Assembly (NCBI GenBank): GCA_002290555.1
Contig: NEUK01000062.1
Location: 1-64,000 of the forward strand
Reading direction: 5' to 3'
Origin: Spartobacteria bacterium AMD-G4
GTDB taxonomy: Bacteria > Verrucomicrobiota > Verrucomicrobiia > Chthoniobacterales > Terrimicrobiaceae
Length of the DNA: 64,000 bases
Shown: positions 15,012 through 24,476 of the stretch, one piece after another
How positions within the stretch are numbered: the stretch's first letter is position 1
How the letters are laid out: every line of letters starts with the position of its first letter
The notes under the pieces: generated by a model
Seen by the model: the letters and a program-made list of their open reading frames with translations, nothing else
Databases searched by the model: none
Told to the model about the DNA's origin: nothing
Position numbers and translations under genes: made by a program

Positions 15012-15677
15012 ATGATAAAAAGTTTGTTCCCCGCGACAATCCTTCCTGCCGTGTTCTTTGCCTTATGCGTCATGCCGCTCAAAGCCCAGGTCAAGTCGGA
15101 GTTTTACATCAAAAAAATCGAATCCACACTTTTCGACACGCCACAATTCTCCGCTGGATCTTATCGTAAGCAGCAGCCTGGGGCGGCGCGTCCAACGCCT
15201 TGGCTCGAGATCGATGTGAATTTCGAGCGCGACGAGATATCGAAGGAGGCTCCCAAATACTCCGAAGAGCTGACGGTGGAATTTTACATCCTTCTGAACA
15301 ACGCTGCTTTGAACCCGGACAAGAAGCCAACACTTCTCACGGGCACCACCACCATTTCCGATGTGCCCTACGGCAAGGGTTTGCACACGGCTGCATTTGT
15401 TTCTCCGCAGACGATGGGACGATACTTTGACGGCAAGCCTCCCGCCTCCGCGCAACAAGCCCTCGTCGATGTGGGCGTCAGCATCTCAGACTCCACTGGC
15501 TTAGTCGCTATAGCCTCTTCCAAGAGTGCGGATGTCGCCAAGCAGGGCAAGGGTTGGTGGGATTCTGACGCAGGAATGACGAAGGTCACTGGCCGTGTTT
15601 TGGAAAAAAGCCAAACTCCTTTTGCGCCAATGGCTTGGGATTATTTTGTGCCTTCCAAACCCAAGTCTGCTAACTAA
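15012..15677 (+). CDS. Secreted protein, Amuc_1102-like component of pilus-associated locus
   Basis: Signal peptide MIKSLFPATILPAVFFALCVMPLKAQ; 221 aa; immediately upstream of PilM-like gene as in the Amuc_1098-1102 locus. Confidence 0.6.
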   Translation: MIKSLFPATILPAVFFALCVMPLKAQVKSEFYIKKIESTLFDTPQFSAGSYRKQQPGAARPTPWLEIDVNFERDEISKEAPKYSEELTVEFYILLNNAALNPDKKPTLLTGTTTISDVPYGKGLHTAAFVSPQTMGRYFDGKPPASAQQALVDVGVSISDSTGLVAIASSKSADVAKQGKGWWDSDAGMTKVTGRVLEKSQTPFAPMAWDYFVPSKPKSAN

Positions 15678-15693
15678 CTGATCTGACTTCGCG

Positions 15694-21862: not shown

Positions 21863-21872
21863 GGACCAACTG

Positions 21873-24476
21873 ATGACTTTTCCAATAAACACGATCCCAG
21901 CGTATTCCAAAGCCCACCCTGCCTTCTTGGGTGCTGTTTTGGTTTTTATCCTCGCAACCTCACAGATTCCAGTCTGCGCAGAGACAGACTTGGTGAGCCT
22001 CGCCGAGCGTGAAATCCTTAAGCGGCAAGAGGAGTCGATGCGAGCAGAAGATTTTGTCATCAAGGCCCGCCGTGACCAAGCTGACAAAAACCGCGAGGGT
22101 GCCTATGCCAATTACCTGCAAGCGATCCAAATGACTCAAATGGGATCGGCCACAAAGGGTAGGCGGTCTGCTCTCTTATTGGATTTCAGCAAGGCCGGAA
22201 TCGACTACGCCAATCGTTACCAAGAGGCGGAGAATGTTGCCAAGACTATTTTATCTCCGGACATAAATCCCTCCTACAAACCCGCCGTTCAACTCCTCGC
22301 AAATCTGGAGCAACCTGGATACTACAACCGCACAGTATCTCCAGCGTTTGCCTCAAAGCGCCAGGAGGTATCCGCGCTACTCAATCAGGCTGAGGGATAC
22401 TATGCTACTGGGCGCAATGATCTTGCCACCAAACGCTACGAACAAGTCCTCAATCTTGATCCGTATAGCATCGCCGCACGCAGTGGGATGGAAAAAGTCA
22501 ACAAACAGCGCAAGGCATATTACGACAGCGCTTACAATGAAACACGCAGCCGCATGCTCTGGCTCACAGACCGCGCGTGGGAGCGCCCGGTCAAGAACCT
22601 CAAATCCTCCGGTCGTGACACGGGGGGCTCCGCCTTCGGTGGGAACGCTGCTGCCGGATCTAAGGATGCCATCAATAATAAACTCAATAAAATCGTCATA
22701 GATAAAATTGATCTCGAAGATGCCTCGATCCGTGAAGTGGTTGATATTTTAAAACAAAAGAGCCGTCAACTTGATACGAGCACCGACGACCCCAAGAAGA
22801 AAGGGGTCAATATTGTGCTGAAATTGGCCTCGCCGCCCACTACGACACCCTCCGCTGATGGACAACCGGCCGCCGGAGGCGCCTCTTCAGAACCCACTGT
22901 CACCGAAGATACTAAAATTTCCCTCTCCTTAAAAAATGTTCCCCTCATCGAGGCTGTTCGTTACCTGACCGAACTTGCCGATCTGAAGTATAAAATCGAG
23001 CCCTTCGCAGTTTCTATCATCCCCATCACCGAGAATACCGAAGATTTGGTCACCAAAGAATACCGCGTGCCACCCGGATTTATCCCCGCCTCGTCCGGAG
23101 AGAGCATTCCTTCCGGTCCACTCCCCGGTGGACAGGGGGCAGGGGATGCCAATACACGCATCACTGGTCGCCGCAATGCCACACAATATTTTACCGAGCA
23201 GGGGGTTCCGTTTCCAGCTGGTGCATTTGCCCAATATGTCGCTTCGGGAAGCAAGCTCATCGTGAGAAACACTCAGGCTGCCGTGGATTTGATCGATACC
23301 ATCGTGGAGGGGGCGACCGGAGTGGCTCCTATACAGGTTGAAATCGAATCGAAGTTTGTGGAAATTTCCCAAAATAATCTGAATGAACTCGGCTTCGATT
23401 GGATGCTGGGGCCTTTTTCCATCGGAGGCGGGGTTTACGGCGACGGCGGAACACGAGCGGGAGGGCAAGAGCTCTCAACAGCCTACTATGAGAACTATCC
23501 TTTTGGAGATGTGGCCTCAAATCCGCTCACTGCCGGAAATCGCAACGGCATTGGAACCAGCTATAATTCAGCCATCACCGCCAATAGCATTAATGCTCTG
23601 CTGGGAGGAATCCCCCAAGGCACGAATGTGGCTTCGCCAGGTGTGCTTGGAATAGCAGGGGTTTTCACAAACCCACAATTTCAAATGGTCATCCGCGCTC
23701 TTAGCCAACAAAAAGGCGTCGATCTGATGTCCGCTCCCAAGGTGACCACTAAAAGCGGCATCAAAGCCACGATCAAGGTGATTCGCGAATTCCCATATCC
23801 CACAGAGTTCAACCCACCGCAGGTGCCGCCGCCTGTAACAGGGGGGGTGCAAGGCGGAAATGCCCAAGGCGCTGCTGGTATTGTGGTTACCAGTGGAGCG
23901 GTGACACCCTCGACGCCATCAGCTTTTGAGAAAAGAGACCTCGGTGTAAGTTTGGAAGTCGAACCGCAAGTCGGTGCGGATAATTTCACTATCGATCTCT
24001 CGCTCTCGCCTGAAGTTGTGGAGTTTGATGGGTTCGTTAACTACGGATCGCCCATTGTGGGTCCGAGATACGACCCGAATCTCATTTTGGCAGGAAATCC
24101 TTCGGGCATCGGAACTTTTATTCTCACGCCCAATATTATCAACCAGCCAATCTTTTCTGTCCGCAAGGTGACCACAAGTGTGAGCATCTGGGATGGTCAG
24201 ACGGTGGCTCTCGGCGGGCTGATTCGTGAGGATGTGCAGAAGGTGAACGATAAAGTGCCGATCCTTGGAGACATTCCTCTGGCGGGGCGTCTCTTCCGCT
24301 CAAATGTAGATCAGAAGATCAAGAAAAACCTCATCGTTTTCGTCACCGCCCGTCTCATGGATGCGCAAGGGCAGCCGCTGATCCAGGAAGATGAGGAGGA
24401 GGGACCCGTGGAGCCGATCGGCCTTCCTGAAGACCTGCCACCTCCGACGATCACCACGCGCTCGGTGGGGAAATAG
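21873..24476 (+). CDS. Secretin (GspD/PilQ family), Amuc_1098-like, copy 2
   Basis: Same architecture as copy 1; IWDGQTVALGGLIREDVQKVNDKVPILGDIPLAGRLFRSNVDQKIKKNLIVFVTARL. Confidence 0.9.
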   Translation: MTFPINTIPAYSKAHPAFLGAVLVFILATSQIPVCAETDLVSLAEREILKRQEESMRAEDFVIKARRDQADKNREGAYANYLQAIQMTQMGSATKGRRSALLLDFSKAGIDYANRYQEAENVAKTILSPDINPSYKPAVQLLANLEQPGYYNRTVSPAFASKRQEVSALLNQAEGYYATGRNDLATKRYEQVLNLDPYSIAARSGMEKVNKQRKAYYDSAYNETRSRMLWLTDRAWERPVKNLKSSGRDTGGSAFGGNAAAGSKDAINNKLNKIVIDKIDLEDASIREVVDILKQKSRQLDTSTDDPKKKGVNIVLKLASPPTTTPSADGQPAAGGASSEPTVTEDTKISLSLKNVPLIEAVRYLTELADLKYKIEPFAVSIIPITENTEDLVTKEYRVPPGFIPASSGESIPSGPLPGGQGAGDANTRITGRRNATQYFTEQGVPFPAGAFAQYVASGSKLIVRNTQAAVDLIDTIVEGATGVAPIQVEIESKFVEISQNNLNELGFDWMLGPFSIGGGVYGDGGTRAGGQELSTAYYENYPFGDVASNPLTAGNRNGIGTSYNSAITANSINALLGGIPQGTNVASPGVLGIAGVFTNPQFQMVIRALSQQKGVDLMSAPKVTTKSGIKATIKVIREFPYPTEFNPPQVPPPVTGGVQGGNAQGAAGIVVTSGAVTPSTPSAFEKRDLGVSLEVEPQVGADNFTIDLSLSPEVVEFDGFVNYGSPIVGPRYDPNLILAGNPSGIGTFILTPNIINQPIFSVRKVTTSVSIWDGQTVALGGLIREDVQKVNDKVPILGDIPLAGRLFRSNVDQKIKKNLIVFVTARLMDAQGQPLIQEDEEEGPVEPIGLPEDLPPPTITTRSVGK

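What the first reader, a model, noticed from the sequence alone, without database searches (positions are those of the whole stretch)
15012..24476. Six-gene Amuc_1102-1098-like pilus/secretin locus
Consecutive co-directional genes encode a secreted protein, a PilM-type ATPase, a PilO-like coiled-coil protein, a TM protein with a DxDxDG motif and two secretins. Order and domain content recall the Akkermansia muciniphila Amuc_1102-Amuc_1098 cluster (from memory of that locus; not aligned here). No PilB/PilT motor, pilin or prepilin peptidase is visible in the window, so it may be an envelope-spanning secretin complex distinct from a canonical T4P or T2SS.
Basis: partly seen in the sequence, partly recalled or inferred. 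Interest (0 to 1): 0.8.

Follow-up and report, generated by a model that had tools for sequence, protein, structure and literature searches.

The report
Type IV pilus base, doubled gate
These six genes encode the Verrucomicrobiota version of the envelope-spanning base and outer-membrane gate of a type IV pilus (the Amuc_1102-1098 locus known from Akkermansia); its motors are encoded elsewhere in the genome, and this lineage has kept two copies of the gate gene side by side.

Summary
In detail: six co-directional genes at 15012-24476 belong to the Amuc_1102, 1101, 1100, 1099 and 1098 families, 1098 twice. The suggestion of a motorless complex distinct from type IV pili does not hold. (1) Amuc_1101 is a PilM-PilN fusion: residues 1-351 match solved PilM (7.5e-41) and 357-473 match M. 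xanthus PilN (4.2e-6), including the PilM-binding INLxP motif. (2) The same MAG encodes PilB-like, PilC-like and PilT proteins, 12 pilin-like genes and a separate T2SS. No prepilin peptidase was found, but a congeneric complete genome has one. (3) In two deeper-branching Verrucomicrobiota genomes the five families follow PilB-PilT-PilB-PilC on the same strand. The most likely role is the PilMN-O-P-Q-like alignment and secretin complex of a motor-driven type IV pilus. Amuc_1099 as "PilP" rests on position only: neither fold nor profile search supports it. The real variant is the tandem secretin pair: one duplication early in this Chthoniobacterales lineage, with both copies kept. The locus type is already published (MUL2).

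The parts
15012..15677 (+). Amuc_1102-family secreted protein (MUL2A-like), Sec-type signal peptide, no class III prepilin signal
   Evidence: NF042424 80 bits > 55; 7dsz 8.7e-5; N-terminus read directly and compared with homologues
15694..17439 (+). Amuc_1101-family PilM-PilN fusion: PilM residues ~1-355, INLTP motif ~359-363, TM ~379-397, coiled coil and C-terminal alpha/beta domain
   Evidence: NF045709 603 bits; PilM 7.5e-41 and PilN 4.2e-6; model mbbe85cec2d5b; hydropathy
17436..18377 (+). Amuc_1100-family protein, PilO position (TM + coiled coil)
   Evidence: NF038287 177 bits vs 180; 6kny 4.8e-15; diverse profile 1.1e-66 to 6lad, no PilO hit
18377..19369 (+). Amuc_1099-family protein, PilP position: TM 3-32, calcium-type loop DSDGDGFSNLEE (137-148), two beta-rich regions
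   Evidence: NF042425 173 bits > 50; model m6e6cc8de4b46; D137/D139/D141 nearly invariant
19376..21862 (+). Amuc_1098-family secretin, copy a (N-terminal TPR, STN-like, secretin)
   Evidence: NF042912 820 bits > 750; Pfam Secretin 8e-34
21873..24476 (+). Amuc_1098-family secretin, copy b (49% identical to copy a); the listed ORF begins at 21819 but the start is most likely 21873
   Evidence: NF042912 816 bits > 750; start site; identity

Best explanation
The locus encodes the envelope-spanning part of a motor-driven type IV pilus: a fused PilM-PilN cytoplasmic/inner-membrane ring (1101), a PilO-type partner (1100), a calcium-motif inner-membrane protein in PilP's place (1099), an outer-membrane TPR-secretin gate (1098) and a secreted accessory protein (1102). 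PilB extends and PilT retracts pilin fibres made on PilC; all are encoded on other contigs. The fibre leaves through the secretin. In this lineage the secretin gene was duplicated once and both copies were kept. Shown: family identities, the PilM-PilN fusion, motors and pilins in the genome, linkage to motor genes in two relatives, the single old duplication. Inferred: that the parts assemble, that the window's locus works with these motors, which secretin serves which role, and the assignments 1100 = PilO and 1099 = PilP.
For: NCBIfam matches for all six. PilM and PilN profile hits to solved T4P proteins, including the INLxP motif by which PilN docks on PilM. In the same genome: PilB-like ATPases on C17, PilT on C6 and C69, PilC-like protein on C42, 12 prepilin-like genes, and a separate GspD/E/F set on C61 that accounts for the only other secretin. 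Prepilin peptidase in the congeneric complete genome and all other relatives tested. PilB-PilT-PilB-PilC followed by 1102-1101-1100-1099-1098 on one strand in L114 and L115. PilT above cut-off in 168 of 170 genomes with an Amuc_1101-family match, against 20 of 27 without. No PilQ (TIGR02515) above cut-off and no PilO (PF04350) in the window's genome, so no rival canonical base is seen there.
Against: No PilO or PilP match by sequence for 1100 and 1099, and the 1099 model matches no solved fold. The window's own PilB and PilC stay below their TIGRFAM/NCBIfam cut-offs and score about equally to GspE and GspF models. Motor genes are unlinked in the window and in most relatives. The PilT association is carried by few clades (two families lack both). 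A prepilin peptidase is not found in this 82%-complete MAG. No experiment shows the fibre.
Confidence: 0.85

Rival explanations
1. A motorless, envelope-spanning secretin complex, not a pilus, e.g. an import or attachment channel for polysaccharides, as MUL2 has been proposed to support attachment and glycan uptake.
For: No motor genes in the window; Amuc_1102 has a Sec signal rather than a prepilin signal; literature links MUL2 to surface attachment and glycan accumulation (PMC13174399).
Against: Motors, platform protein and pilins in the same genome; linkage with PilB-PilT-PilB-PilC in two relatives; PilT in 168 of 170 genomes with the family.
Confidence: 0.06
2. A type II secretion system fragment.
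For: GspD model hits on the secretins (132-135 bits, far below the cut-off of 351).
Against: A separate GspD-GspE-GspF set lies on contig C61; 1101 matches PilM/PilN rather than GspL above cut-off; linked ATPases in L114 include PilT, which T2SS lacks.
Confidence: 0.04
3. About the tandem secretins only: copy b is a redundant, recent or decaying duplicate without its own role.
For: Copy b is somewhat faster evolving on the tree.
Against: Copies a and b form two separate clades (100 support each) with matching early branches, and all 14 tandem loci carry both; both window copies are full length with intact secretin domains at 49% identity.
Confidence: 0.1

Closest known systems
Akkermansia muciniphila Amuc_1102-1098 locus (MUL2; 'PilQ' = Amuc_1098; PAS = Amuc_1100)
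   Same: Same five protein families, same order and orientation; seen directly in an unnamed relative of family f5 with high-scoring family members (L119) and described in PMC5332112, PMC4960237 and PMC13174399.
   Different: Two adjacent secretins here. In the genome of L119 there is one at the locus and another secretin of the family about 0.64 Mb away (L120). 1101 and 1100 score just under the NCBIfam cut-offs.
Type IVa pilus alignment complex PilMNOPQ (Myxococcus xanthus, Thermus)
   Same: PilM and PilN by significant profile hits; secretin; order M-N-O-P-Q; next to PilB/T/C in L114 and L115.
   Different: PilM and PilN fused; secretin has N-terminal TPR and no detectable AMIN domain; 1100 and 1099 not matched to PilO/PilP; 1099 carries a calcium-type loop; extra secreted 1102.
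Type II secretion system GspL/GspM/GspC/GspD
   Same: Shared ancestry of secretin and inner-membrane platform.
   Different: A distinct Gsp set exists elsewhere in the genome; no GspL above cut-off.

Membership tests
Amuc_1102-1098 (MUL2) locus | Five families in the order 1102-1101-1100-1099-1098, one strand | tested here: met
Amuc_1102-1098 (MUL2) locus | NCBIfam cut-offs for 1102, 1099, 1098 | tested here: met
   80>55, 173>50, 820 and 816>750
Amuc_1102-1098 (MUL2) locus | NCBIfam cut-offs for 1101 and 1100 | tested here: inconclusive
   603 vs 650 and 177 vs 180, full length, E 6e-181 and 5e-52
Amuc_1102-1098 (MUL2) locus | Role in attachment / glycan uptake | not testable with these tools
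   literature only (PMC13174399)
Type IV pilus machinery | PilM | tested here: met
   Pfam PilM_2 89 bits > 27; PilM structures 7.5e-41
Type IV pilus machinery | PilN (INLxP motif, TM, coiled coil) | tested here: met
   residues 357-473 to 3jc8 PilN, 4.2e-6; but Pfam PilN not among hits and fold search not significant
Type IV pilus machinery | PilO by Pfam PF04350 | tested here: not met
   none in window genome; Amuc_1100 profile finds no PilO structure
Type IV pilus machinery | PilP fold or sequence | tested here: not met
   no profile hit, no fold match (model pLDDT 73.6)
Type IV pilus machinery | Outer-membrane secretin | tested here: met
   PF00263 E 8e-34 and 2e-33; but TIGR02515 PilQ model below cut-off and no AMIN domain
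Type IV pilus machinery | PilT retraction ATPase in genome | tested here: met
   423 and 390 bits > 319
Type IV pilus machinery | PilB assembly ATPase and PilC in genome | tested here: inconclusive
   616 and 595 bits vs PilB cut-off 676; PilC 403 vs 700; scored about as well by GspE/GspF models. Their homologues in L114/L115 lie beside this locus
Type IV pilus machinery | Prepilin-type pilins | tested here: met
   12 N_methyl matches above cut-off; 4 of them lie on the T2SS contig C61
Type IV pilus machinery | Prepilin peptidase | tested here: inconclusive
   absent from the 82% MAG; present in congeneric complete genome G127
Type IV pilus machinery | Linkage to motor genes | tested here: met
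   not in the window; in L114 (contiguous) and L115 (about 4 kb apart) of the same phylum
Type II secretion system | GspE/GspF next to the secretin | tested here: not met
   the Gsp set is on C61

The most novel reading that the evidence does not exclude
The two tandem secretins are not redundant: they build a mixed (hetero-oligomeric) outer-membrane gate, or two alternative gates for one pilus base, in a whole lineage of Chthoniobacterales. Known type IV pilus secretins are homo-oligomers of one PilQ (own knowledge).
Probability: 0.35. Interest if true: 0.7.

Novelty: new variant of a known kind. Interest (0 to 1): 0.4.

Why it matters
Amuc_1100 is a much-studied immunomodulatory protein often described as part of a pilus or the cell surface. 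Placing it beside a PilM-PilN fusion, and beside PilB/PilT/PilC in relatives, argues that it is an inner-membrane alignment protein of the pilus machine, and gives a clear genetic test. The doubled secretin is a natural experiment on whether one pilus base can use two gate proteins.

Tried and rejected
Structure model of 1099 (pLDDT 73.6) searched against the PDB: no match at E <= 0.001, so PilP identity is not supported by fold. Model of the 1101 C-terminal part: no significant match; weak similarity to Amuc_1100 and ferredoxin-like folds was not used as evidence. Broader 1099 and 1100 alignments did not reach PilP or PilO. Looking for the missing prepilin peptidase in the window's MAG failed and is best read as incompleteness, given G127. 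A Fisher test of PilT against 1101 (p 1.3e-5; counts tallied by hand at E<1e-30) ignores shared ancestry and is only supporting. A suspected fused double secretin in G078 proved to be two adjacent ORFs (880 and 1073 aa) once the DNA was read.

Full report
Observation. The six ORFs exist at the stated positions on the + strand and nearly abut. NCBIfam names them, in order, Amuc_1102, Amuc_1101, Amuc_1100, Amuc_1099 and twice Amuc_1098; 1101 and 1100 fall slightly below the curated cut-offs but match over their full length. Solved Amuc_1102 and Amuc_1100 are recovered by sequence. The second secretin most likely begins at 21873, behind an AAGGA motif.

Anatomy. Amuc_1101 is more than a PilM ATPase. 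A profile of 33 homologues matches M. xanthus PilM over residues 1-351 (7.5e-41) and M. xanthus PilN over residues 357-473 (4.2e-6). The PilN match begins at the INLxP motif that docks PilN on PilM (own knowledge; the solved PilM-PilN peptide entry 5eou aligns through it); here (EINLTP) it is fused directly behind the PilM domain and followed by a TM segment and coiled coil. Amuc_1100 and Amuc_1099 occupy the PilO and PilP positions, but sequence and fold searches found no PilO or PilP, so those two assignments are positional. Each secretin has a TPR-like N-terminus, an STN match below cut-off and a C-terminal secretin domain. Amuc_1102 homologues carry what read as ordinary Sec signals, not prepilin signals (by eye).

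Genome context. The window lies in an 82%-complete, 74-contig MAG. It holds two PilB-like ATPases in tandem on C17, PilT on C6 and C69, and a PilC-like protein on C42, plus 12 prepilin-like genes. A separate GspD-GspE-GspF set on C61 supplies the genome's only other secretin. PilB and PilC are named with caution: their scores lie below the curated cut-offs and close to those of GspE and GspF. No prepilin peptidase was found, but the congeneric 100%-complete genome G127 and nine other relatives have one.

Relatives. Eighty Chthoniobacterales loci keep the order 1102-1101-1100-1099-1098 with few exceptions; three (L033, L056, L060) have no secretin downstream although sequence is available. In two genomes of another family of the phylum (G159, G015) the genes PilB-PilT-PilB-PilC precede 1102-1101-1100-1099-1098 on one strand; in L114 they are contiguous, in L115 about 4 kb separates PilC from 1102. 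The first ATPase, PilT and PilC of L114 were checked with NCBIfam. Across 197 genomes of the phylum, 168 of 170 with an Amuc_1101-family match (E < 1e-30) have PilT above cut-off, against 20 of 27 without; the two families lacking both drive this, so it is supporting evidence only. No genome among 45 checked, with or without the locus, has a PilQ (TIGR02515) above cut-off.

Tandem secretins. Copies a and b are 49% identical over 786 aligned positions. On a tree of 68 sequences the a copies and the b copies form two separate clades, each with 100 support, with matching early branches (L031/L035, then L023/L027, then the rest). All 14 relatives' loci with two copies belong to these clades (in L024 copy a is in two pieces), while 27 other loci with at least 2.6 kb to spare downstream have one. 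One duplication early in this lineage, with both copies retained, is the simplest reading. Tandem pairs also occur in G090 and G078 and look independent, though their long branches make placement unsure.

Comparison with the known. [quoted passage not shown] muciniphila, located to the outer membrane by immunogold and named PilQ, with its TPR part compared to pilotins (PMC4960237); the cluster in an envelope fraction (PMC5332112); and the locus as MUL2, conserved in Akkermansiaceae and described as pilus biogenesis for attachment (PMC13174399). The papers searched did not mention PilN for Amuc_1101 or two secretins; subscription papers were not searchable, so priority is not claimed.

Verdict. 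A well supported member of the Amuc_1102-1098 type, most likely serving a motor-driven type IV pilus rather than a motorless complex, with a lineage-specific doubled secretin as its one unusual feature.

Noticed in passing
L131, L117, L114 (1099 homologues): Deep-branching 1099 homologues carry paired CxxC motifs (zinc-ribbon-like) and, in L117 and L131, a second TSP3 calcium motif that the window protein lacks.
   Followed up: partly
L033, L056, L060: Loci with 1102-1101-1100-1099 but no secretin within the available downstream sequence; the secretin must be elsewhere or absent.
   Followed up: partly
L119 and L120 (G024); L121, L122, L123 (G066): Relatives in families f5 and f8 carry additional Amuc_1098-type secretins far from the main locus.
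   Followed up: partly
L111:5496-6035 (own genome, contig C34): A 180-aa prepilin-like protein, candidate major pilin, with a second pilin-like match on the opposite strand about 0.9 kb away.
   Followed up: no
L106 (own genome, contig C17): The two PilB-like genes lie on a contig that also holds ORFs resembling flagellar proteins by eye (not tested).
   Followed up: no
Amuc_1099 hits P0128, P0129, P0167, P0206: Some 1099 homologues are 470-500 aa and align over only 55% of the query, suggesting an insertion or fusion variant.
   Followed up: no
L070:7993-9264: A PilT-like gene lies divergently next to 1102 in one Chthoniobacterales locus; L038 and L047 also have PilT-like or PilC-like hits within 10 kb.
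   Followed up: partly
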